Shown here: positions 39,018 to 60,651 of the stretch, piece after piece
Layout: the number at the start of each line of letters is the position of its first letter
Numbering within the stretch: the stretch's first letter is position 1
Assembly: GCF_000718095.1 (NCBI RefSeq)
Contig: NZ_JOEI01000002.1
Coordinates: 62,001-126,000, forward strand
DNA from: Streptomyces scopuliridis RB72
GTDB lineage: Bacteria; Actinomycetota; Actinomycetes; Streptomycetales; Streptomycetaceae
Direction: 5' to 3'
DNA length: 64,000 nt
Program-made: the position numbers and the translations under genes
Notes under the pieces: generated by a model
Seen by the model: the letters and a program-made list of their open reading frames with translations, nothing else
Databases searched by the model: none
Told to the model about the DNA's origin: nothing

Positions 39018-39079
39018 AGGAACCGCTGGCCTTCTTGGCGGATGAGTCGGTCGTGATAGCTTGCCGAGGCCAGTCGAAC

Positions 39080-39238
39080 TCTCGTACGTGTATGACGGGA
39101 GTCGGGGAATCCGGTGCGAATCCGGAACTGACGCGCAGCGGTAAGGGTGACGGGCGGGGCATTGAAGTCACTGGGCCAGCGATGGTCCGGGAAGGCGCCC
39201 CGTTCGAGTGATCCCAAGTCCGAAGACCTGCTGGCGGA
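39080..39238 (+). ncRNA. cobalamin (B12) riboswitch
   Basis: The leader has the conserved cobalamin-aptamer core: GGGAATCCGGTGCGAATCC followed by the GACGCGCAGCGGTAAG segment, then TCACTGGGCCA, and the terminal B12-box-like AGTCCGAAGACCTGC at about 39217-39231. It lies 49 bases before a GTG-started ABC importer operon and should repress it when cobalamin is plentiful, probably by occluding the ribosome-binding site as in other actinomycetes. Boundaries are approximate. Confidence 0.92.
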
Positions 39239-39286
39239 CCGTACGAACGGACCCCGCGAACGGGTCCTCGACGTTGAGGAACGACT

Positions 39287-40318
39287 GTGACCTTCGCGCG
39301 TCCCGCCCCCCGCATCGCCATGCTCCTTTCCGGAGTGCTCCTGCTGGCCGGTTGCGGTGGCACCTCCGGTGGCTCCACTTCGGGGGCCTCCGACAGGGTC
39401 CGTCCCCTGGAGAACTGCGGGCGCACCGTGGACACGGGTGGTGCGGTACCTCAGCGGGCCGTGTCGCTGAACCAGGGCACGACCGAGATCATGTTCTCCC
39501 TCGGCCTCGCCGACAGGATGGTAGGCACCGCCACCTGGACCGACCCGGTGATGAAGGGTCTGGAGAAGGCCGACGAAGGAGTGGAACGGCTGGCGGAGAA
39601 CTACCCCTCCTTCGAGCGTGTCCTCGGCACCGAACCCGACTTCGTCGCGGCCTCCTTCGCCTCCACGCTGGGAAAGGGCGGAGTGGCCACGCGCGAGCAG
39701 TTCGAGAAGCTCGGCGTTCCCACCTACCTCTCCCCGTCCGACTGTGAGGGCAAGGACAACAGTGGCGGCGGCGACGGCAGCCGGTCCGAACCGCTGGCGA
39801 TGGAGACGGTGTACGGCGAAGTACGGGACCTGGCCCGTATCTTCAGCGTCGAGGAGCGAGGGGAGAAGCTCGTCGCTCAGCTCACGTCCCGCGTGAACAA
39901 GGCCACGAAGGATCTCGACGCGTCCGACGTCACGCTGCTGTACTGGTTCGCCAACGCCGAGTCCCCGTACATGGCGGGATGCTGCGGCGCCCCCGGCATC
40001 ATCACCGGGGAACTCGGAGCGAAGAACGTCTTCGACGACACCACCGAGGAGTGGCCGCAGATCAGTTGGGAGACCGTGGCCGACCGCAACCCCGACGTCC
40101 TGGTGATCGGCGACCTGACCCGTAAGTCGGAGACCGCCGAGAGTGCCGCGAAGAAGATCGAGTTCCTGGAGTCCAACCCGGTCACGAAGACCATGGACGC
40201 CGTACGGAACAAGCGGTACATCCTGCTCAGCGGGCAGGCCATGAACCCGGCGATCCGCACGGTCGAGGGAGTTGAGCAGGTCGCGGCCGGCGTACGCGAG
40301 TACGGCCTGGCGAAGTGA
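39287..40318 (+). CDS. btuF: BtuF-like substrate-binding lipoprotein (corrinoid importer)
   Basis: 343 residues with a lipoprotein signal: hydrophobic segment then LLLAGC with Cys23. The mature domain is a periplasmic-binding-protein-2 fold (TroA/FecB type) with RAVSLNQGTTEIMFSLGLADRMVG and PDFVAAS. An insert with two Cys-rich spots (SDCEGK, GCCGAPG) is present. The GTG start has TGAGGAACGA upstream. Its position directly under a cobalamin riboswitch and overlap with a FecCD permease gene make cobalamin or another corrinoid the most likely ligand. An iron-siderophore ligand is the alternative. Confidence 0.85.
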   Translation: MTFARPAPRIAMLLSGVLLLAGCGGTSGGSTSGASDRVRPLENCGRTVDTGGAVPQRAVSLNQGTTEIMFSLGLADRMVGTATWTDPVMKGLEKADEGVERLAENYPSFERVLGTEPDFVAASFASTLGKGGVATREQFEKLGVPTYLSPSDCEGKDNSGGGDGSRSEPLAMETVYGEVRDLARIFSVEERGEKLVAQLTSRVNKATKDLDASDVTLLYWFANAESPYMAGCCGAPGIITGELGAKNVFDDTTEEWPQISWETVADRNPDVLVIGDLTRKSETAESAAKKIEFLESNPVTKTMDAVRNKRYILLSGQAMNPAIRTVEGVEQVAAGVREYGLAK

Positions 40319-42948: not shown

Positions 42949-43257
42949 GCGCTCATCGTATCGGGGTGCTGTCACGGCCGACGCCCTCCCGTTCGATATG
43001 CCCCCGCTGACCTGCGGCGCAGCGCCGCCCGGGCGCCCGGACCCGCCGTATCGGCCAAGGCACCGGCCCCGCTCAGGCCCTGCTCAGGCCCCGCTCAGGC
43101 GCGCCGCCGACCCTCCGTCCGAACGCCGCACAGTCGGTACCACACAAGTATTGCATCCCTTCGCGACCGATGCTTGTATACCAGTCGTGCCGATCAGTGG
43201 CGATCTCGGGCGCCCCACTCGACCGGTGCCGTACGGATCGTCCGAAGGAGTGGACCT
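42949..43257. other. divergent promoter region of the sugar-acid operon
   Basis: No gene is seen. The operon-proximal part is less G/C-rich and holds a possible -35 TTGCAT (43151-43156) and -10 TTGTAT (43175-43180) with an 18-base spacer, overlapped by the operator candidate. Confidence 0.4.
43173..43184. promoter_or_regulatory. candidate GntR operator
   Basis: CTTGTATACCAG, a palindrome with one mismatched pair around GTATAC. It resembles the TNGTNNNACNA and TTGTATACAA sites bound by FadR-type regulators of sugar-acid genes. It overlaps the predicted -10 of the mannonate-dehydratase operon, so binding would block transcription. A perfect second copy was not found by eye. Confidence 0.5.
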
Positions 43258-50554: not shown

Positions 50555-51397
50555 ATGCGCCTGCTCCCCCCGTCGCATCAGAAAGGCAATGGACCACAAT
50601 TGCAGATCAATCTTCTGGGACCGATGGAAGTAGTCGATGACGGGGTTCAGGTCCGGATACCGGGAGAGAAACTACGCTCGATCCTAGCGGCCCTGGCATT
50701 ATCGGTGGGGCGCTCCGTTTCTCGGAGTGAACTCATCGACGAGCTATGGGGCGAAGAGCCACCGAACAGCGCCGAGAATTCACTGCACGGCCATATAGCC
50801 CGGCTGCGCCGGGTATTGGTCGCACACGGGGGGAAGGCAGCTCTGCGCAATGTCATCCAGACGTCGCCGACCGGATACGTACTGGAACTGACCGAAGAGG
50901 ATGTCGACGCTTCCCGGCTCCTCCAACTGGTGGCCCGCGCCGAAGCGGCGAGCGCGCACAACCCCAAAGGCGCCGTTGATCTGCTGAACGAGGCGGTATC
51001 GCTCTGGCGAGGCCCGGCGCTGATCGACGCCGGCCACGGAATGATCTGTCAAGTGGCGTACACCCAGCTGGAAGAGGTCAGACTGGGAGCGTACGAAAGG
51101 CTCTTCGACATCCGGCTCCGGCTGGACCAGCCCCGGGCCGTCATCCCCGGGCTGGAGCAACTGCACGCCAGGTACCCGCTGCACGAGCGCTTCTGCGAAC
51201 AGCTCATCACCGCGCTCTACCTGTCAGGACGGCAGGCCGATGCCCTCAACACCTACCACCGCACCCGCGAGTACCTGTCGCAGCATCTGGGACTTCAGCC
51301 CGGACACGGACTGAGAGACAAATTCCAGGCCATCCTCCGGCAGTCTCCCCACCTGTCCATATCGGGGGCCGGGGAAGAGGTCATACCGATTTCGTGA
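50555..51397 (+). CDS. SARP-family pathway activator
   Basis: 280 residues: an OmpR-like winged helix (INLLGPMEVVDDGVQV...ELIDELWGEEPPNSAENSLHGHIARLRR) followed by the bacterial transcriptional activation domain (AVDLLNEAVSLWRGPALID... to HLGLQPGHGLRDKFQAIL). This is the compact SARP plan of ActII-ORF4 and DnrI, with no ATPase or TPR extension. Start ATG 50555 has a GGGGGAG site upstream; a TTG at 50600 is an alternative nearer the domain. SARPs bind direct repeats spaced 11 bases apart. Two such triple repeats occur at cluster promoters (52478-52506 and 60254-60282), so it very likely activates this cluster. The valanimycin cluster also has a SARP. Confidence 0.93.
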   Translation: MRLLPPSHQKGNGPQLQINLLGPMEVVDDGVQVRIPGEKLRSILAALALSVGRSVSRSELIDELWGEEPPNSAENSLHGHIARLRRVLVAHGGKAALRNVIQTSPTGYVLELTEEDVDASRLLQLVARAEAASAHNPKGAVDLLNEAVSLWRGPALIDAGHGMICQVAYTQLEEVRLGAYERLFDIRLRLDQPRAVIPGLEQLHARYPLHERFCEQLITALYLSGRQADALNTYHRTREYLSQHLGLQPGHGLRDKFQAILRQSPHLSISGAGEEVIPIS

Positions 51398-52388
51398 CCC
51401 GCAGGATCTGCCAGATGGCACCCAGCCGCGCCCGCCCGTGGAAGGCCAGATACTCGGGAAGCACCAGCTGGGGGCCCCACTTCTCCTTGTAGGCGAGCTG
51501 GCTGGCCGCGGGATAGACCTTGTCGCCGTGGTCGGCCAGCAGCCGCATGATCCTGCGGGTGGCGCCGCTGGCTTCGGCCGGATCGTGCTCGGCGGACAGC
51601 CCGGTGAACGGCGTGAATCCGAAGTGCAGCCACTCCGCGCCCTCCTGACGGAACGTCTCCAGCGCGGTCAGGTTGATCGCCTCCATCACCCCGGGAGGCG
51701 CGTCCGGGAGCCGGCGGCTGAGGTCGTGCAACCACCCGGGACGCGATCCGTACGCGGGTGAGTACGAGATATAGGCGATGGGCACCCCGTCGAGCCGCCC
51801 GAGCATCAGCCGGCGCGCGTGCTGTACGGGCCCGCCCAACTCGCCGACCAGGAACTCGATCTCCTTGACATGACGGCCCTTGCTCCGCAGCCAGGCGCCG
51901 TCGATACCGGCTATGTCCGCCGCGCACTCCTCATAGGAGACCTCCGTCACCTCCAGACCACTGCGCCGGGCCCGCGAGATCTTGTTGCGGAGTTTCATGA
52001 AGCGCGTTCCGCGCAGGGCGAAGTCGGGCAGGTGCACCGAGTACGACGAGCCCACCTGATTGACCGTGAAACCGCACCGGACGTACAGCTCGACGTCCGA
52101 CGAGAGGACCTGTACGGCGACGACCTTGCGGCGCCGCCGGCGCGCGTGCGCGAGGAAGGCCCGCAGCAGCGTCTCCTGCTGTTCCGGCGGGGCGTAGACG
52201 CCCCCGAACTGGATCAGATACGAGCCCGCCTCGCGATAGGCGACGACTCCGTCCGCCGACGGATCGGTGAAGTACGCGTTACCGGAGTTGAGCGCGAGGA
52301 AGGCGCTGGGGTTATCGCCGTCCTTGCGAAGCTTTTCCAGCACTCCGAGCACTTCTTCGTCGGATACCTCTCCGCTGCGCGTGGTCAT
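51381..52388 (-). CDS. DUF2156 / MprF-C-terminal-like aminoacyl-tRNA-dependent transferase (VlmA-like)
   Basis: 335 residues, soluble, with a tandem GNAT-like fold seen in the catalytic C-terminal half of lysylphosphatidylglycerol synthase. Visible landmarks: VGSSYSVHLPDFALRGTRFMKLRNKISRARR in the middle, WLRSKG, DLSRRLPDAPPGVMEAINL, then YKEKWGPQLVLPEYLA at the end. No membrane flippase domain is attached. Family members move an amino acid from aminoacyl-tRNA to a small acceptor; in valanimycin synthesis VlmA uses seryl-tRNA and a hydroxylamine, and I recall it as a member of this family. Here the gene sits in a SARP cluster with amine-forming genes and a tRNA-like gene, supporting the same chemistry. 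Its 3' end overlaps the convergent SARP gene, and its start faces the SARP box. Confidence 0.82.
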   Translation of the reverse strand: MTTRSGEVSDEEVLGVLEKLRKDGDNPSAFLALNSGNAYFTDPSADGVVAYREAGSYLIQFGGVYAPPEQQETLLRAFLAHARRRRRKVVAVQVLSSDVELYVRCGFTVNQVGSSYSVHLPDFALRGTRFMKLRNKISRARRSGLEVTEVSYEECAADIAGIDGAWLRSKGRHVKEIEFLVGELGGPVQHARRLMLGRLDGVPIAYISYSPAYGSRPGWLHDLSRRLPDAPPGVMEAINLTALETFRQEGAEWLHFGFTPFTGLSAEHDPAEASGATRRIMRLLADHGDKVYPAASQLAYKEKWGPQLVLPEYLAFHGRARLGAIWQILRVTKSV

Positions 52389-52477: not shown

Positions 52478-52506
52478 GTCTCAGCGCCGTCTCAGCGCCG
52501 TCTCCG
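52478..52506 (+). promoter_or_regulatory. SARP-type box, three 11-bp-spaced repeats
   Basis: GTCTCAG at 52478-52484, GTCTCAG at 52489-52495 and GTCTCCG at 52500-52506, exactly 11 bases apart. This is the spacing SARP activators need. It lies in the 212-bp divergent region between the DUF2156 gene (minus) and the aldehyde dehydrogenase gene (plus) and matches the box at 60254. Confidence 0.8.
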
Positions 52507-52600
52507 GGGATTTTCAGGGCGGTCTGTGAAGGTCGAAGCCACCACTTGGAACTGCGGACATTCCCGTCGGCTGATGGGAAATGGAGAGCGGAGGGGCTGC

Positions 52601-54283
52601 GTGAGCAGCGATATCGCGACGCCTTCGGCGTCAGAAGAAGAAGATTCCGGAGCGCCTCGTCCGGAAGTCCCCACCTACCTTTCCCTCATTGACGGAAAGG
52701 CCGTTCCGAGCGGGACCTGGGGGTACGTGGTCGACTCGGACGCCCTGCTCGACGACGCGTTCTCCACGCTCACCATGAAGCGGAAGCTGGAGAGCGGCCG
52801 CATTCCCGCCGAGAATCTGCCGGCCACCATCGTGGGCCGGGTGGCGAGGGCGGACCGCCGGACGACGGATCTGGCGCTCGAAGCGGCGGCCGCGGCCGCC
52901 GCGCCCTGGGCGGCGTTCCCCCCGGAGACCCGGATCGAACAGTTCGGCACGCTGCTGTACCGCAGGCTCGCCGAGCAGGCCGAGCGGATCACCGAAGTCC
53001 TCGTCCAGGAGGGGCACCCGCTGGCTCTGGCCCGCTGGCAGGTGTCCGGCGCGCTGGAGGTCTTCGGGCCCGAGTCGCTGGGCTTCTACCGGAGCCAGAT
53101 GCTCCAGGAGTACCGGCACGGCGAGCGGCGGATCTCGGTGCGCCGCCGCCCCGACGGTGTGGTCTGCCTCAATCCCCCGCAGAACGCCCCGCTCTCCAGC
53201 GCGCTGCTCGGCGTGACCGCGATCATGGCGGGCAACTCCCTGGTCGTACGGGCGCCGCGCAGCGCCCCGCTCGGCGTCATGTACGTACTGCAGGAGGTGG
53301 TGGCGCCGGTACTGGCGGAGCTGGGGGCTCCCCCGGGCACCCTCGGCGTGGTGTGCGGCGACCCGGCTCCGATGCTGGACGCCTGGCTGGAGAGCCCGCT
53401 CGTCGACGACATCATGTACTTCGGCAGCAGCGAGAACGGGATGCGCTTCCAGGAGCGCTGCATCGCGGCGGGCAAGAAGCCGATCCTCGAACTGGCCGGC
53501 AACGACGTGGTGCTGGTGTGGAAGGACGCCGATCTGGACCTGGCGGCCGAGGCCATCACGGAGAGCTTCTACGGCTCCGGCCAGCTGTGCATGATCCCGA
53601 ACCAGGTGGTGGTCCACCCGGACGTCCGCGACGAGCTGGTCGCCCTGCTGGCCGAGAAGGCCGCGCGGATCAGGCCAGGCCGGTCGTCGGAGGAGGGCGT
53701 CCTGCTCACTCCGGTGCTGCGCAACGAGAAGTTCTTCTCGTGCCTGCGCGACGCTCTCGACCGGGGCGCGGAGCTGGTGTGCGGCGGACACGCGATCCAG
53801 GAGGACGGAACGCGCGACACGGCCGGGATCTTCCTTGAGCCCACGGTGGTGGTCGTACGAGGTCTGGAGAAGGCCCGGGAGGTCCAGGCGGTCCGCGAGG
53901 AGACGTTCTTCCCGCTGCTGCCGGTGATCGTGGCCGAACCCGCCCCCGACGACGTCCTGCTGGACCGGTTCGTCGACTTCGTCAACAGCAACGCCTACGG
54001 GTTGCGGAACTCGGCGTGGGCCCGGGACCCCGAGGTGGTCGACCGGATCGTGACCCGGATCACCCAGGGCGGGCTGCTCAAGGTGAACGACTCCCACATC
54101 GGCTTCCTGCCGTATCTGCCGACCCACGGCGGTACCGGACTCACCGGAGGCGTGTTCGGCGAGGCCAACTACCCGATCCTGCGCACCTCTCATATCCAGG
54201 GCGTGAGCGTCGCCGCCGGCGCGCGCCCCTCCGAGGCGGTGTTCGGCGCCTGGAAGGCCCTCCAGGCCGCCGCCGGCCACTGA
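52601..54283 (+). CDS. aldehyde dehydrogenase-superfamily protein
   Basis: 560 residues. NAD(P)-binding and catalytic landmarks of the ALDH fold are present: CLNPPQNAPLSS, APRSAPLGVMYVLQEV, FGSSENGMRFQ, ILELAGND (catalytic-base region, usually ELGGK), the nucleophile Cys in YGSGQLCMIPN, and EETFFPLLPV. An N-terminal extension of about 50 residues (LIDGKAVPSGTWGYVVDS) resembles acyl-reducing or semialdehyde ALDHs. GTG 52601 is chosen for its GGAGGGG site; upstream frame lies over the SARP box. In the cluster it may make a fatty aldehyde from an acyl thioester for transamination, or oxidise an aldehyde. Confidence 0.85.
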   Translation: MSSDIATPSASEEEDSGAPRPEVPTYLSLIDGKAVPSGTWGYVVDSDALLDDAFSTLTMKRKLESGRIPAENLPATIVGRVARADRRTTDLALEAAAAAAAPWAAFPPETRIEQFGTLLYRRLAEQAERITEVLVQEGHPLALARWQVSGALEVFGPESLGFYRSQMLQEYRHGERRISVRRRPDGVVCLNPPQNAPLSSALLGVTAIMAGNSLVVRAPRSAPLGVMYVLQEVVAPVLAELGAPPGTLGVVCGDPAPMLDAWLESPLVDDIMYFGSSENGMRFQERCIAAGKKPILELAGNDVVLVWKDADLDLAAEAITESFYGSGQLCMIPNQVVVHPDVRDELVALLAEKAARIRPGRSSEEGVLLTPVLRNEKFFSCLRDALDRGAELVCGGHAIQEDGTRDTAGIFLEPTVVVVRGLEKAREVQAVREETFFPLLPVIVAEPAPDDVLLDRFVDFVNSNAYGLRNSAWARDPEVVDRIVTRITQGGLLKVNDSHIGFLPYLPTHGGTGLTGGVFGEANYPILRTSHIQGVSVAAGARPSEAVFGAWKALQAAAGH

Positions 54284-54340: not shown

Positions 54341-55480
54341 ATGCGCTCGTTGGAAGCCGCACGCGAGACGTGCGAATCATTCCTGCCCGGCTTGCTCGAT
54401 CAGCTCTCCGGCACCCCGCTGGAAGAGCTGGAAGCACCGAAGAACCCCGCACTCGACCACTTCCGTACGGCCGGCGGCCCCAGTCTGGTGATCCCCAAGA
54501 CCTACGGCGGGGCGGGAGCCGATCCGCTCCAGGCCCTCGCCGTGGTACAGGCCCTGGCCTCCCGGGCACCGTCCCTCGCGATCGCCACCACGATGCACCA
54601 CTTCTCGGTGGCGACCCTGTTCACCCTGGCCGACTCCATCCAGAGCAGTGGCATGGAGTGGGCGCTGCTCGAAGGGATAGCCGAGCAGCGGCTGCTCGTC
54701 GCCTCGGGCTTCGCGGAGGGCCGGCCGGGACGGGGCATCCTCTCGCCGATGATGTCGGCGTCGAAGGCGGACGGCGGCTATGTGATCAACGGCTCCAAGA
54801 AGCCGTGCAGCCTGTCGCACTCGATGGACCTGCTCACCGCCAGCGTGGCGCTGCCGACCGACAGCGGTGAGCCGAGGATGGCGGTGCTGCTGATCCCCCG
54901 TCAGACCGACGGGATCAGCGTCCATCCGTTCTGGGGAAGCCGGACGCTCGCGGGCGCGGAGAGCGACGAGGTGCGGCTCACGGACGTCTTCGTCGACGAG
55001 CAGCTGCTGATGCGCACCGAGCCGGAGGGCGACGCCGGGAACCTGGACGATCTCCAGACCGTCGGCCTGATCTGGTTCGAACTGCTCATCTCCGCCTGCT
55101 ATCTCGGCATTGTCAGCGGACTGGTCGAGCGGGTCGTCGACGGCGGCCGGGGCAGTGACTCCGACCGCGCCCGGGTGCTCACCCGGCTGGAGACGGCCGC
55201 CCTGCTGCTGGCGGGCACCGCCCGCATGATCAGGGACGGCGAGACCGGCAACGCGGCGCTGGCCCGCACGCTCGTGGCGCGGTACGCCGCCCAGGACGCG
55301 CTGGGCGACGCGCTGAACCAGGCCGTCGAACTGCTCGGCGGCACGGCCTTCATGTCCTCTACCGACGTGGCCTATCTGGCCGGTGCCGCACACGGTCTGT
55401 CGTTCCACCCGCCGTCGCGGTCGAGCTTCACCGGTCCGTACCTCGACCACGTCGCAGGCCACCCGCTGCGCCTGACCTGA
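54341..55480 (+). CDS. acyl-CoA dehydrogenase-like flavoprotein
   Basis: 379 residues with the three-part acyl-CoA dehydrogenase fold: helical N-domain with VIPKTYGGAGADPLQ, beta middle domain (GYVINGSKKPCSLSHSMDLLT, then FWGSRTLAGAESDEVRL), and a C-terminal four-helix bundle ending DALNQAVELLGGTAFMSS. The usual catalytic Glu position is not obvious. Family members introduce double bonds or hydroxylate amines and acyl chains using FAD. In this cluster it could desaturate the acyl or amine chain, since azoxy natural products such as elaiomycin carry a conjugated alkene, or act as an N-oxygenase. ATG has GAGGGGGA upstream. Confidence 0.87.
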   Translation: MRSLEAARETCESFLPGLLDQLSGTPLEELEAPKNPALDHFRTAGGPSLVIPKTYGGAGADPLQALAVVQALASRAPSLAIATTMHHFSVATLFTLADSIQSSGMEWALLEGIAEQRLLVASGFAEGRPGRGILSPMMSASKADGGYVINGSKKPCSLSHSMDLLTASVALPTDSGEPRMAVLLIPRQTDGISVHPFWGSRTLAGAESDEVRLTDVFVDEQLLMRTEPEGDAGNLDDLQTVGLIWFELLISACYLGIVSGLVERVVDGGRGSDSDRARVLTRLETAALLLAGTARMIRDGETGNAALARTLVARYAAQDALGDALNQAVELLGGTAFMSSTDVAYLAGAAHGLSFHPPSRSSFTGPYLDHVAGHPLRLT

Positions 55481-55495
55481 TTGAGAGGGAGATCC

Positions 55496-56845
55496 ATGCC
55501 ATCGACGACACCGACATCCGTTCTTCCGCCGGCCGTGCCCCCGACCGCGCCCGCGGCCGTCCCCGCCACCACGCCCGCCCTCGGGCGTGAGGAGCTGGGC
55601 AGGCTGTACCGGGCCCGTCTCAGCAAGGGCCGGGCGACCCTCGGCGAGCTGTTCGGCGGGCACATCGAGGTCGCCTCCGAGGGCGCCTGGGTCACCACCT
55701 CGACGGGCGAACGCTTCCTGAACTGCGGTGGATACGGTGTGTTCCTGATGGGCGCCCGGCACCCCACCGTCATCCGGCATGTCGCCGAGCAGCTGGCCAC
55801 CCACCCCGTCGCCACCCGTCTCTTCCTCGAACCGCAGGTCGCCCTGGCCGCCGACGCCCTGGTGTCGGTGGCGCCACCAGGACTGGAGCGGGTGCACTTC
55901 GCCGGCTCGGGTGCGGAGGCGGCCGAGACGGCCATCAAGCTGGCCCGCACCCGTGGCCACCACCGGCTGATCGCCATGGAGAACGGCTACCACGGCAAGA
56001 CCATGGGCGCGCTCAGCCTGACCGGCAAGAGCGTCTTCCAGGACCCGTTCCGGCCACTGCTGCCCCAGACGAGCCATGTGCCGTACGGTGACGCCGCCGC
56101 GCTCGAATCCCTGCTGGCCACGGCTCCCGGCGAGGCGTGTGTGTTCATCGAGCCGGTGCAGGGCGAGGCCGGGGTGGTGATCCCGCCGACGGGCTATCTG
56201 CGCGCGGTGCGGGAACTGTGCGACCGGTACGGGGCCTTCCTCGTCCTGGACGAGATCCAGACCGGTCTGGGCCGGCTCGGCTCCTGGTGGGGCGCCGACC
56301 GGGAGGGCATCACCCCCGATGTGCTGCTCGTCGGCAAGGGGCTCAGCGGGGGCGTCGTACCGGTGTCGGCCGTGGTCGCCACCCGGGAGGCGTTCAGGGC
56401 CTTCGACCGGGACCCGTATCTGCACACGTCCACGTTCTCCGGGGCGCCGCTGGCGATGGCCGCCGTACGCGGGGCGCTCGCGGCGATGCACGAGGACGAC
56501 CTCGTGACCCGCTCCCGCGAGCTCGGCGCCGAGATCCTCCCGGAGCTGGACCGTATCGTCCGCTCGCACTACGGCGACGCCGTACGTGAGGTGCGGGGCC
56601 AAGGTCTGCTGCTGGGGATCGAGTTCGCCGAGCCGGGACCGGCGGGCGATCTGCTGATCGAGCTGATCATGAACGGCGTCATCGCCAATCACTCCCTCAA
56701 CTCGCATCTCGTCCTGCGCTTCACCCCGCCGGCGGTGCTGACCAGAAGCGACCTGGACTTCTTCTACGACGCGGTCGACCGCGCGTGCCGCGCGCAGGGC
56801 GCCCGGTACGCACCCACAGCGGAAGGTGACAAAATCCATGCGTAG
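55496..56845 (+). CDS. class III (fold type I) PLP aminotransferase
   Basis: 449 residues. Motifs in order: HFAGSGAEAAETAIKLAR, NGYHGKTMGALSLTG, FIEPVQGEAGV, LDEIQTGLGRLG (cofactor Asp) and Schiff-base Lys281 in LLVGKGLSGG, then STFSGAPLA. This is an omega-aminotransferase of the ornithine/diaminobutyrate type. Alongside an aldehyde dehydrogenase and ACP/KS genes it probably turns a fatty aldehyde into the alkylamine building block. An alanine/proline-rich N-terminal 30 residues is unusual but harmless. The gene is close-packed (15-base gap) and its end overlaps the next gene. Confidence 0.91.
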   Translation: MPSTTPTSVLPPAVPPTAPAAVPATTPALGREELGRLYRARLSKGRATLGELFGGHIEVASEGAWVTTSTGERFLNCGGYGVFLMGARHPTVIRHVAEQLATHPVATRLFLEPQVALAADALVSVAPPGLERVHFAGSGAEAAETAIKLARTRGHHRLIAMENGYHGKTMGALSLTGKSVFQDPFRPLLPQTSHVPYGDAAALESLLATAPGEACVFIEPVQGEAGVVIPPTGYLRAVRELCDRYGAFLVLDEIQTGLGRLGSWWGADREGITPDVLLVGKGLSGGVVPVSAVVATREAFRAFDRDPYLHTSTFSGAPLAMAAVRGALAAMHEDDLVTRSRELGAEILPELDRIVRSHYGDAVREVRGQGLLLGIEFAEPGPAGDLLIELIMNGVIANHSLNSHLVLRFTPPAVLTRSDLDFFYDAVDRACRAQGARYAPTAEGDKIHA

Positions 56846-57353
56846 CGTGCAAGTGAAGGTCCGCGTTCATGACGTCGACGCGGCGGTGGCGTTCGACCGT
56901 GTCGGCGCGTTCGGCCGGTACTCCGAATTCACCGAGGTCATCCGCTCGGTGACGACCCGTCAGGAGTCCGGCACGCAGGAAGTCAGCGACTGGGAGGTCT
57001 ACTTCCGCAACGGCATCCTGTGCTGGACCGAGTCCGACCGGTTCGACCGGGACAACCTGACCATCACCTTCGAGCAGATCGACGGTGACTTCGCCGAGTT
57101 CACCGGTGTGTGGCGGCTCGTCGCGGACGGCAAGGACTGCGTGGTCGACTTCAGCGCCGAGTTCGACTTCGGCATCCCCAGCCTCGCGGGCATTCTCGAC
57201 CCGGTCGCTGAGCGGGTCTTCAAGGAGACCATCGCCCGTGTCGTCATCAGCCTCTTCGAGGGCAACGCCTCGGTGGTCGGCGACGAGGCGGTCGCCCGCG
57301 CCGTCGCCGAGGTGACGGCCGCGCCCGTCGTCGCCGCGTCGGGATCGCACTGA
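56838..57353 (+). CDS. SRPBCC (START-like) protein, polyketide cyclase-type
   Basis: 171 residues. A single helix-grip fold begins RSVQVKVRVHDVDAAVAFDRVGAFGRY, continues with WEVYFRNGILCWTESDRF and a long C-terminal helix. Such proteins bind hydrophobic ligands and act as aromatases/cyclases, dehydratases or carriers. With only one ketosynthase in the cluster, aromatic cyclisation is unlikely, so a ligand-binding or dehydrating role on an alkyl intermediate is more plausible. ATG 56838 sits inside the end of the aminotransferase gene, with GGAAGG 11 bases upstream. Its stop overlaps the start of the membrane protein gene. Confidence 0.8.
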   Translation: MRSVQVKVRVHDVDAAVAFDRVGAFGRYSEFTEVIRSVTTRQESGTQEVSDWEVYFRNGILCWTESDRFDRDNLTITFEQIDGDFAEFTGVWRLVADGKDCVVDFSAEFDFGIPSLAGILDPVAERVFKETIARVVISLFEGNASVVGDEAVARAVAEVTAAPVVAASGSH

Positions 57354-57868
57354 TGGACGGCAAGAACCTCTTCGAGACGCCGACCACCTACCGGCTGATC
57401 CGGCTGGAGTACGGGCTCGGTCTGGTGATCGCCGCGGCCTTCTTCTTCACCCATCTCGACGAGGTCAGATGGCTCCCCGCGATCGGGTTGTTCGCCTATA
57501 TCGACCTCATCGGCTACATCCCCGGGGCGATCGCCTACCACCGCAGCGCGTCCAAGCGGATACACCGGGCGTACTACGTGCTCTACAACGTCATGCACAG
57601 CCTGGTCACCCAGACGCTCGTGGTGCTCGCGTGGATCTGGCTGTGGGGTCCCGAGTGGGCGCTGCTGGTCATCCCCATCCATCTGTTCGGCGACCGCGCG
57701 CTGTTCGGCAATTTCCTCAAGCCCTTCGCGCTGGACTTCGAGCCGGTGGCCCATCCCGCCTACTCCCGCTTCACCGACCAGTTCGACGCCGCGCCGGCCG
57801 CGCGCCCCGGACCGGCGGACGGTGTGGCCGGTGTGGCCACCGCCGCCCGGCAGCCGCAGGGCGGCTGA
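57353..57868 (+). CDS. small integral membrane protein, candidate N-N bond enzyme (VlmO-like role)
   Basis: 171 residues with about four transmembrane helices: LGLVIAAAFFFTHL, PAIGLFAYIDLIGYIPGAIAY, SLVTQTLVVLAWIWLWG and ALLVIPIHLFGDRALFG. Charged and metal-capable residues lie at helix ends: AYHRSASKRIHRAYY, MHS and IHLFGD, giving four histidines on one face. No named family is certain. In valanimycin biosynthesis a membrane protein, VlmO, is reported to participate in N-N bond formation after VlmA. The size and cluster position here make this the best candidate for such a role, but that is inference. It is coupled to the SRPBCC gene by a TGATG overlap. Confidence 0.7.
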   Translation: MDGKNLFETPTTYRLIRLEYGLGLVIAAAFFFTHLDEVRWLPAIGLFAYIDLIGYIPGAIAYHRSASKRIHRAYYVLYNVMHSLVTQTLVVLAWIWLWGPEWALLVIPIHLFGDRALFGNFLKPFALDFEPVAHPAYSRFTDQFDAAPAARPGPADGVAGVATAARQPQGG

Positions 57869-57931: not shown

Positions 57932-58171
57932 ATGGAAGACATCTACCAGCGCCTGCTGGAACTGCTCACCAGCACCTTCGGCCTGGACCCCGAGAGCATC
58001 GAACCGACCAGCACGCTCAGCGCACTCGAACTCGACTCCCTCGCCCTCGTGGAGCTCTCCGTCGCCGCCCAGGAGGAGTTCGACGTACCGCTCGAAGACA
58101 GCGACCTGGGCCCCGAGTCGACCGTCGGGCAGGCCGCCGAGCTCATCTCGGGCAAGTTGGCCACCGTCTGA
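57932..58171 (+). CDS. acyl carrier protein
   Basis: 79 residues, a standard type II ACP. The 4'-phosphopantetheine serine is in LELDSLALVEL (about residue 37), within the expected acidic four-helix sequence. GAAGGGAAC precedes the ATG. The stop overlaps the ketosynthase ATG. It probably carries the acyl chain that supplies the alkyl part of the product. Confidence 0.92.
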   Translation: MEDIYQRLLELLTSTFGLDPESIEPTSTLSALELDSLALVELSVAAQEEFDVPLEDSDLGPESTVGQAAELISGKLATV

Positions 58172-60253: not shown

Positions 60254-60282
60254 GTCTCAGGAAGATCTCAGCGTGATCTCAG
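60254..60282 (+). promoter_or_regulatory. second SARP-type box, three 11-bp-spaced repeats
   Basis: GTCTCAG at 60254-60260, ATCTCAG at 60265-60271 and ATCTCAG at 60276-60282, each 11 bases apart. Same heptamer and spacing as at 52478. It lies between the divergent SGNH-like gene and the tRNA-like gene plus methyltransferase operon. A promoter activated here would start near 60300, just upstream of the tRNA-like sequence. Confidence 0.8.
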
Positions 60283-60341
60283 GAAGCTGCGGCAGCATCA
60301 GTGGCGCAGCGGAAGCAGCGGCCGGTCCGCCTCCGAGGCTG

Positions 60342-60440
60342 GGAGAGGTACCCGAAGTGGTCCAACGGGGTTCCGGGGCAACCCGGATCGGGTCGCCGGA
60401 CAGGCACTGGCCCGCGCAGGTTCGAATCCTGCCCTCTCCG
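60342..60440 (+). tRNA. tRNA(Ser)-like RNA with a GNRA tetraloop in place of the anticodon loop
   Basis: A 99-base class II tRNA-like sequence. Acceptor stem GGAGAGG/CCTCTCC, 7 perfect pairs, discriminator G at 60440. D stem CCCG/CGGG with A14, GG18-19 and A21 equivalents. T arm GCAGG-TTCGAAT-CCTGC, fully canonical. The variable arm of 28 bases folds as a 6-bp stem (60389-60394 with 60409-60414) plus an inner stem. Instead of an anticodon loop there is TCCGGG-GCAA-CCCGGA, a perfect 6-bp stem capped by a GNRA tetraloop, so there is no U33 and no anticodon. G1-C72, G2-C71, A3-U70 and G73 match known bacterial SerRS identity elements. CCA is not encoded. It appears chargeable by SerRS but unable to decode. 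Confidence 0.72.
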
Positions 60441-60651
60441 CCGACCATCCGATGCCGTGCCGCGGCGCCGTCCTCGTGGGTGAGGGGACCGCGCCCAAGG
60501 CCGTCAGGCAGACGGGATACCAGCGGGCCGCTCCCTGTGCGCGCTGTGGCCCGCATATCCATTCCCGGAAGTTGCCGGGCCCGCCCTCCGGGGCCGGCGG
60601 CCCATTCCGTGGCACCACCCGAGACGTTGCGAATCGCGAAGGGAAGTCCGG

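What the first reader, a model, noticed from the sequence alone, without database searches (positions are those of the whole stretch)
60342..60440. Non-decoding tRNA(Ser)-like RNA inside a biosynthetic gene cluster
Seen: complete class II tRNA architecture (7-bp acceptor, 4-bp D stem, canonical TTCGAAT T loop, 28-nt variable arm, G73), but the anticodon arm is a perfect 6-bp stem with a GCAA tetraloop, leaving no anticodon. Known: bacterial SerRS reads the long variable arm and acceptor end, not the anticodon; the DUF2156/VlmA-type transferase encoded nearby takes an aminoacyl group from tRNA. Inferred: this RNA is charged with serine but kept out of translation, supplying seryl groups to the cluster transferase. 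I know of no published anticodon-less tRNA dedicated to secondary metabolism.
Basis: partly seen in the sequence, partly recalled or inferred. Interest (0 to 1): 0.94.

Follow-up and report, generated by a model that had tools for sequence, protein, structure and literature searches.

The report
Anticodon-less serine tRNA for natural products
Many Streptomyces gene clusters that encode a predicted amino-acid-transfer enzyme, of the protein family used to make valanimycin, carry their own transfer RNA in which a hairpin stands where the anticodon should be; it likely carries serine to that enzyme and never to the ribosome, which would explain how such pathways get serine without competing with protein synthesis.

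Summary
At 60342-60440 the RNA folds as a full class II tRNA with a 6-bp stem and GCAA tetraloop in place of the anticodon arm. A second copy with a GAAA loop lies 10 kb away. Such an RNA is in 30 of 30 searchable genomes holding a close relative of the cluster's DUF2156/VlmA-type transferase and in 51 of 392 Streptomyces genomes; all 51 also hold the transferase, against 82 of 392 overall. In 24 of 51 the RNA gene lies within 400 bp of the transferase gene, divergently. The arm that replaces the anticodon varies in sequence and length but keeps pairing through changes on both sides. SARP-type repeats precede 89 of 100 copies. Nine of 19 RNA+ clusters carry a second SerRS; 0 of 21 RNA-less ones do. 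Best reading: a dedicated, non-decoding tRNA(Ser) that donates seryl groups to a VlmA-type transferase. Expression, charging and transfer are untested. Ten searches of an open-access library showed no precedent.

The parts
60342..60440 (+). RNA1: anticodon-less class II tRNA(Ser)-like RNA (acceptor 60342-60348 with 60433-60439, D arm 60351-60369, variable arm 60390-60413, T arm 60416-60432, discriminator G73 60440)
   Evidence: MFE cloverleaf; RF00005 33.7 bits; family model and conservation
60372..60387 (+). 6-bp stem with GCAA tetraloop in place of the anticodon arm
   Evidence: pairing kept by changes on both sides across the family
60255..60282 (+). three TCTCAG repeats spaced exactly 11 bp, SARP-type site before RNA1 (binding inferred)
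   Evidence: phased TCAG repeats before 89 of 100 family RNAs
52479..52517 (+). same 11-bp-phased TCTCAG-type repeats between the divergent transferase and biosynthetic operon
51381..52388 (-). DUF2156 / LPG_synthase_C protein (P0121), VlmA-type aminoacyl-tRNA transferase, predicted partner
   Evidence: PF09924 2.5e-63; PDB relatives include Lys- and Ala-tRNA-dependent phosphatidylglycerol synthases
50555..51397 (+). SARP regulator gene (BTAD + Trans_reg_C)
   Evidence: AfsR/SARP-like in NCBIfam, below the curated cut-offs
52526..54283 (+). aldehyde dehydrogenase-family enzyme
   Evidence: PF00171 1.2e-60; found in 31 of 31 sister loci
54341..55480 (+). acyl-CoA-dehydrogenase-fold flavoenzyme, VlmH-like candidate N-hydroxylase (inferred)
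   Evidence: found in 30 of 31 sister loci
55481..56845 (+). class III aminotransferase
   Evidence: PF00202 1.4e-80
57353..57868 (+). 171-aa protein with three hydrophobic segments; VlmO-like candidate (inferred)
   Evidence: found in 30 of 31 sister loci and 21 of 21 RNA-less loci; hydropathy
57932..58171 (+). acyl carrier protein
   Evidence: PF00550
60652..61332 (+). methyltransferase gene just downstream of RNA1

Best explanation
The window carries an RNA gene that folds as a complete class II tRNA(Ser)-like cloverleaf with a hairpin where the anticodon should be, and it is predicted to be charged with serine and to hand that serine to the DUF2156 (VlmA-type) transferase of the surrounding gene cluster instead of to the ribosome. 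Proposed steps: (1) the cluster's SARP regulator likely switches on the RNA genes together with the transferase and biosynthetic operon, since the same 11-bp-phased repeats precede them (repeats shown, binding inferred). (2) The RNA is processed and given CCA like a tRNA (inferred; 21 of 114 members have CCA encoded after G73). [quoted passage not shown] (4) Without an anticodon, and often with an arm of the wrong length, it would not decode, so the seryl group is not spent in translation (inferred from structure). (5) The transferase moves the seryl group onto the pathway's amine-derived acceptor, as VlmA does with isobutylhydroxylamine in valanimycin (reported for VlmA, inferred here).
For: Fold and Rfam score. 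Paralogue with a GAAA loop beyond the far side of the cluster. Among 392 Streptomyces genomes 51 are RNA+, and all 51 are DUF2156+, against 31 of the 341 RNA- genomes, Fisher p 9.6e-43; three further RNA+ genomes from a class-wide sample, one in another family, also have DUF2156 on the RNA's contig. RNA within 400 bp of and divergent from the transferase in 24 of 51, same contig at 2.3-32 kb in 19 more. Changes on both sides in the replaced arm and the variable arm. 3 of 114 members pass a canonical anticodon-arm test against 36 of 36 ordinary class II tRNAs. Two or more TCAG at 11-bp spacing before 89 of 100 copies, against 0 of 60 flanks of ordinary tRNAs and 69 of 9560 random 120-mers. SerRS paralogue in 9 of 19 RNA+ loci and 0 of 21 RNA- loci, two of the nine checked against Pfam; the 23 genomes with a SerRS at least 68% identical to the one in L216 are all RNA+. 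The transferase is related by sequence to aminoacyl-tRNA-dependent enzymes of known structure. All 114 collected members have G73, as the host's five tRNA-Ser do and its five Leu and one Tyr class II tRNAs read here do not.
Against: No RNA-seq, charging or deletion data. 31 of 82 DUF2156+ genomes lack a detected RNA; of the 21 examined, 20 fall in one transferase clade, so the wider transferase family does not need it. RNA presence changes only twice on a 75-row transferase tree: genomes share descent, so the Fisher value overstates the number of independent cases. This genome has no second SerRS, so serine here rests on sequence features and relatives. In 8 of 51 RNA+ genomes RNA and transferase are on different contigs, and one of these (G117) has only two contigs. 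Up to 11 dispersed copies in a genome go beyond one cluster, one RNA. SARP genes like this one were not found in 7 of 19 RNA+ loci L214-L232. Looser TCAG triples also occur elsewhere in the 98 kb (43073 and 90062). 31 of 114 members have a D-to-variable-arm distance within the ordinary 19-20 nt. Three members can be drawn with a 7-nt loop bearing U33. The free-folding loop-length control failed: real tRNA-Ser loops also fold shut, so loop length is not used as evidence.
Confidence: 0.8

Rival explanations
1. The RNA is a dedicated carrier but is charged with another amino acid (for example leucine or alanine) and serves the same transferase.
For: Amino acid identity is not measured; a VlmA homologue in azodyrecin biosynthesis was proposed to use alanyl-tRNA (PMC9379638 passages).
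Against: G73 in all 114 members with a long variable arm, as in host tRNA-Ser and unlike its Leu and Tyr tRNAs; the best ordinary match of the family model is tRNA-Ser(GGA); SerRS paralogues were looked for and found in RNA+ clusters; other synthetases were not searched for.
Confidence: 0.1
2. The RNA is a regulatory or decoy tRNA mimic (for instance it senses serine charging or titrates SerRS or modification enzymes to tune the cluster), not a substrate of the transferase.
For: Multiple dispersed copies and shared upstream repeats would suit a titrating RNA.
Against: Divergent adjacency to the transferase gene in 24 of 51 genomes and its presence in all 51; acceptor and T stems are the most conserved parts, as expected for synthetase and transferase contact.
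Confidence: 0.07
3. A tRNA pseudogene or integration-site remnant without function.
For: ARAGORN reports nothing in the window and tRNA-??? for the second copy and several relatives; tRNA genes are common integration sites (recalled).
Against: Paired changes in the variable stems, shared upstream repeats, presence in many Streptomyces and one genome of another family.
Confidence: 0.01
4. An unusual but translating tRNA(Ser), e.g. with a processed or intron-containing anticodon arm.
For: Longer arms in the multi-copy subfamily; three members allow a 7-nt loop with U33; ARAGORN reads a Ser, Gly or Ile anticodon in three sister loci.
Against: No common anticodon or loop sequence; host has ordinary tRNA-Ser for five genes and four anticodons; presence tracks a biosynthetic gene.
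Confidence: 0.02

Closest known systems
VlmA / VlmL system of valanimycin biosynthesis (Ser-tRNA-dependent transferase plus SerRS)
   Same: PF09924-type transferase, SARP-controlled cluster, SerRS paralogue in many relatives; VlmA takes serine from Ser-tRNA (PMC4052509 and PMC11705231 passages; PF09924 as VlmA marker and SerRS in some VlmA groups, PMC9379638 passages).
   Different: The passages seen speak of Ser-tRNA(Ser) without a dedicated RNA, and PMC4052509 says that how it is directed away from translation is unknown. Here a dedicated anticodon-less tRNA is encoded with the cluster. No VlmA sequence was compared directly.
tmRNA
   Same: tRNA-like end without an anticodon (PMC2481249 abstract), charged by a synthetase that ignores the anticodon (recalled).
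   Different: No mRNA-like part or tag ORF; class II with D, T and variable arms; predicted to work outside the ribosome.
Non-proteinogenic tRNA(Gly) species of staphylococci used for peptidoglycan bridges (recalled)
   Same: tRNA set aside as aminoacyl donor for a Fem-type transferase outside translation.
   Different: Those keep an anticodon arm (recalled); here the arm is replaced by a hairpin of variable length and sequence.
tRNA(Ser) (RF00005)
   Same: Cloverleaf, long variable arm, G73, GG start.
   Different: No anticodon; no shared loop sequence; D stem to variable arm 15-26 nt over 114 members against 19-20 in 31 ordinary tRNA-Ser, with 31 of 114 inside that range.

Membership tests
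tRNA (RF00005) | Covariance-model score over gathering threshold and cloverleaf fold | tested here: met
   RNA1 33.7 bits against 29; MFE cloverleaf. The second copy was not reported by the same search
tRNA (RF00005) | Anticodon in a 5-bp stem and 7-nt loop with U33 | tested here: not met
   RNA1 fails; 3 of 114 family members pass, 36 of 36 ordinary class II tRNAs pass
tRNA(Ser) identity | Long variable arm and G73 | tested here: met
   All 114 collected members have G73; the four variable-arm pairs are kept in all 108 rows
tRNA(Ser) identity | Accepts serine from SerRS | not testable with these tools
   needs in vitro charging
tmRNA | mRNA-like domain with tag ORF | tested here: not met
   No tmRNA found by ARAGORN or Rfam in the window; RNA is 99 nt
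VlmA-type transferase | PF09924 domain related to aminoacyl-tRNA-dependent synthases | tested here: met
VlmA-type transferase | Transfers an aminoacyl group from tRNA to a hydroxylamine | not testable with these tools
   needs enzyme assay
Azoxy (valanimycin-like) cluster | VlmH-like flavoenzyme with VlmA | tested here: inconclusive
   Acyl-CoA-dehydrogenase-fold protein at 54341-55480; no direct comparison with VlmH made
Azoxy (valanimycin-like) cluster | Membrane N-N enzyme VlmO and diiron VlmB | tested here: inconclusive
   171-aa protein with three hydrophobic segments; no direct comparison made; VlmB not looked for
Azoxy (valanimycin-like) cluster | SerRS paralogue (VlmL) in the cluster | tested here: not met
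   One PF02403 protein in this genome, on another contig; a SerRS is in 9 of 19 RNA+ relatives' loci
SARP regulon | 11-bp-phased repeats upstream and a SARP gene in the cluster | tested here: met
   binding itself not tested

The most novel reading that the evidence does not exclude
A parallel, non-decoding seryl-transfer system exists in actinobacteria: a tRNA(Ser) stripped of its anticodon, in many clusters with its own SerRS, and a VlmA-type transferase, under a SARP regulator, in about 13% of sampled Streptomyces genomes. It would be a class of tRNA whose only job is to carry an amino acid into specialised metabolism.
Probability: 0.75. Interest if true: 0.97.

Novelty: categorically new. 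Interest (0 to 1): 0.95.

Why it matters
[quoted passage not shown] A dedicated RNA that cannot decode would answer the first and make the second directly testable. It would also give a natural, possibly orthogonal SerRS/tRNA/transferase set, a marker for finding such clusters, and a reason why tRNA finders that look for an anticodon overlook such RNAs.

Tried and rejected
A genus-wide search for the hairpin string with up to one mismatch matched 5 of 392 genomes; the four hits outside this genome are unrelated sequence, so models R1 and R2 replaced exact patterns. The family model also picks up ordinary tRNA-Ser: in the class-wide scan 96 of 345 genomes had matches, but the 26 loci at 66 bits or below that I read (L237-L262) are ordinary tRNA-Ser; the rest at or below 66 bits were not read. 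That leaves four genomes, this one included. Scans over 40 genomes use stricter filters that lose weak matches. 21 of the 31 DUF2156+ RNA- genomes were checked in +-10 kb (less at contig ends); best match 19.5 bits. Of the 51 RNA+ genomes, 50 had at least one RNA locus fetched and seen; G373 was not. Free-fold loop length was dropped as evidence because its control failed. AlphaFold without an alignment gave pLDDT 33 and is not used. The scanner missed the L054 copy, later found by R1; the 114 sequences were selected by a GGAGAG(A/G)T start, a TTC(G/A)A T loop and paired T, D and acceptor stems, so their sameness there is partly by selection. In one search, 100 of the 114 were kept (tandem followers and copies with under 100 bp upstream dropped). 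In one search the ketosynthase query had a wrong start (stop reported), so that column is unreliable; the SARP was not matched in 3 of 31 loci. The 30 genomes and the 392-genome sample overlap (for example G421 and G135 give the same contig and place), so the two counts are not independent. The pattern scan near RNA2 found no promoter or terminator. Paper lists were cut: 40 of 49, 12 of 130, 12 of 92 shown.

Full report
The thing itself. At window 60342-60440 the sequence reads as a class II tRNA: 7-bp acceptor, 4-bp D stem, 5-bp T stem with TTCGAAT, a long variable arm and G73. Between D and variable arms stands a 6-bp stem closed by GCAA. The minimum-energy fold of 60340-60445 is this cloverleaf. 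Rfam's tRNA model gives 33.7 bits, over its gathering score of 29 but the weakest of the 67 matches above cut-off in the genome; ARAGORN does not report it. A second copy lies at contig C2:132101-132187 on the minus strand, about 10 kb beyond the first, 82% identical over the aligned part, with a GAAA loop in place of GCAA; ARAGORN calls it tRNA-???. The host has five ordinary tRNA-Ser (anticodons GCT twice, TGA, CGA, GGA), all with G73, so serine decoding does not need these RNAs.

Surroundings. The cluster holds a SARP regulator (50555-51397), a PF09924/DUF2156 protein (51381-52388, minus), an aldehyde dehydrogenase, an acyl-CoA-dehydrogenase-fold flavoenzyme, a class III aminotransferase, a polyketide-cyclase-like protein, a small protein with three hydrophobic segments, an acyl carrier protein, a ketosynthase and a methyltransferase. 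The DUF2156 protein is related by sequence to MprF and to Lys- and Ala-tRNA-dependent phosphatidylglycerol synthases of known structure; PMC9379638 uses PF09924 as its VlmA marker (passages). In the 98 kb read, pairs of TCTCAG at exact 11-bp spacing with at most one mismatch occur at three places: before RNA1, before RNA2 and between the transferase and the biosynthetic operon; looser TCAG triples also occur at 43073 and 90062. SARP sites are described as heptamer direct repeats overlapping -35, with three repeats upstream of vlmJ and vlmA-vlmH for VlmI (PMC10972967 passages).

Sister clusters. A scan of named genomes with the transferase gave 31 loci, mostly Streptomyces with some Kitasatospora, Wenjunlia and Streptacidiphilus. 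They share the aldehyde dehydrogenase (31 of 31), the flavoenzyme, aminotransferase and small membrane protein (30 of 31 each) and the SARP (28 of 31). A model of ten RNAs separates the family (88.7 bits and up in that set) from host Ser, Leu and Tyr tRNAs (56.4 bits and below). In the whole genomes behind these loci, 30 of 30 have a best match of 74.4 bits or more; one record (L072) was not held, and the 30 best matches were read and are of this kind. By equal contig length, RNA and transferase share a contig in 25 of 30; in the other five they lie on different contigs.

Population test. With a 36-member model, 51 of 392 Streptomyces genomes are RNA+. With the transferase at E 1e-25, 82 of 392 are positive and include all 51 RNA+ (Fisher p 9.6e-43, inflated by shared descent). 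The RNA lies within 400 bp of the transferase gene and divergent from it in 24 of 51, at 2.3-32 kb in 19, and on another contig in 8. A class-wide sample of 345 genomes adds three: two Streptomyces and one genome of another family with three tandem copies; all three have the transferase on the RNA's contig, and two of them a cluster-type SerRS there (97% and 61% identical to that of L216). On a quick tree of the transferase (75 scored rows, labelled by genome) RNA presence needs two changes; 20 of the 21 RNA-less rows form one supported clade. In 20 of the 21 RNA-less loci no SARP like this one is matched, but neither is it in 7 of the 19 RNA+ loci fetched.

Constraint on the RNA. 114 distinct members were collected by a scan that itself asks for a GGAGAG(A/G)T start and paired stems; 101 start GGAGAGG and 13 GGAGAGA, all have G73, and 97 share one T arm. 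In an alignment of 108 distinct rows 97.5% of cells pair, and 222 cells change on both sides, against 57 expected by shuffling and 19 or fewer in slid controls; the hairpin in the anticodon place and the variable arm carry 196 of them. That alignment was fitted to the model, which leans towards the structure, and shuffles do not control for relatedness. The distance from D stem to variable arm is 15-26 nt, against 19-20 in 31 ordinary tRNA-Ser; 31 of the 114 lie in the ordinary range. Predicted loops share no sequence; 20 of 114 are GNRA.

Promoters and copies. Of 100 non-tandem copies with enough upstream sequence, 89 have two or more TCAG at exact 11-bp spacing and 69 have three; 0 of 60 flanks of 30 ordinary tRNA loci do (both sides counted), and 69 of 9560 random 120-mers do, drawn from loci that include the RNA loci. 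Six genomes carry 8 to 11 matches to the model; of the copies of these that were read, all but one (L277) have the phased repeats.

Which amino acid. Nine of 19 RNA+ loci fetched hold a second SerRS 36-40% identical to the housekeeping one, and 0 of 21 RNA-less loci do. Two were checked against Pfam: both have the class II core, and the SerRS N-terminal domain is over the cut-off in L216 and just under it in L230. In the genus, 57 of 392 genomes have a SerRS close to the L216 enzyme at E 1e-100: 23 at 68% identity or more, all RNA+, and 34 at 56-61%, 5 RNA+ and 29 RNA-. So 23 of 51 RNA+ genomes have the closer type, while the looser type is mostly in RNA-less genomes and may do something else. 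The window's genome has one SerRS, on another contig. [quoted passage not shown]

Reading. The simplest account is a dedicated seryl donor kept out of translation by loss of its anticodon. Shown: the RNA, its conservation, its linkage to the transferase and the phased upstream repeats. Inferred: SARP binding, processing, charging with serine, non-decoding, and transfer. PMC4052509 (passages) states that the way Ser-tRNA is diverted from translation to valanimycin is unknown.

Literature. In ten full-text searches of the open-access library (three lists cut short) no listed title or abstract start points to an anticodon-less or cluster-encoded tRNA for natural products. A January 2026 review of tRNA-dependent enzymes (PMC12945691; section 7 read, term search of the main text) has no occurrence of 'anticodon', 'dedicated' or 'tRNA gene'. 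Subscription journals and preprints are not covered.

Noticed in passing
window 39054-39247 +: Cobalamin riboswitch, 89 bits, just upstream of the open frame at 39287.
   Followed up: no
G327, G365, G003, G282, G033, G388 (e.g. L144-L160, L273-L280): Genomes with 8-11 matches to the RNA model scattered over the chromosome; nearly all of those read have their own phased GTCAG repeats, and many a similar leader (GTGAACGGC...CCGGG) before the RNA.
   Followed up: partly
L141, L142, L143, L161, L162, L234, L236: Tandem arrays of two to four anticodon-less RNAs; in L162 next to the transferase gene.
   Followed up: partly
L194-L211, L213, L233: A clade of VlmA-like clusters without the RNA and without a SARP or SerRS match in the stretch read; possibly using ordinary charged tRNA, as proposed for azodyrecin.
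   Followed up: partly
G683:C134: Genome of another family with three tandem RNAs about 1 kb from a SerRS 61% identical to the Streptomyces cluster enzyme, and the transferase about 25 kb away.
   Followed up: partly
rows at 56-61% identity: A second group of SerRS paralogues, in 34 Streptomyces genomes of which 29 are RNA-less; role not examined.
   Followed up: no
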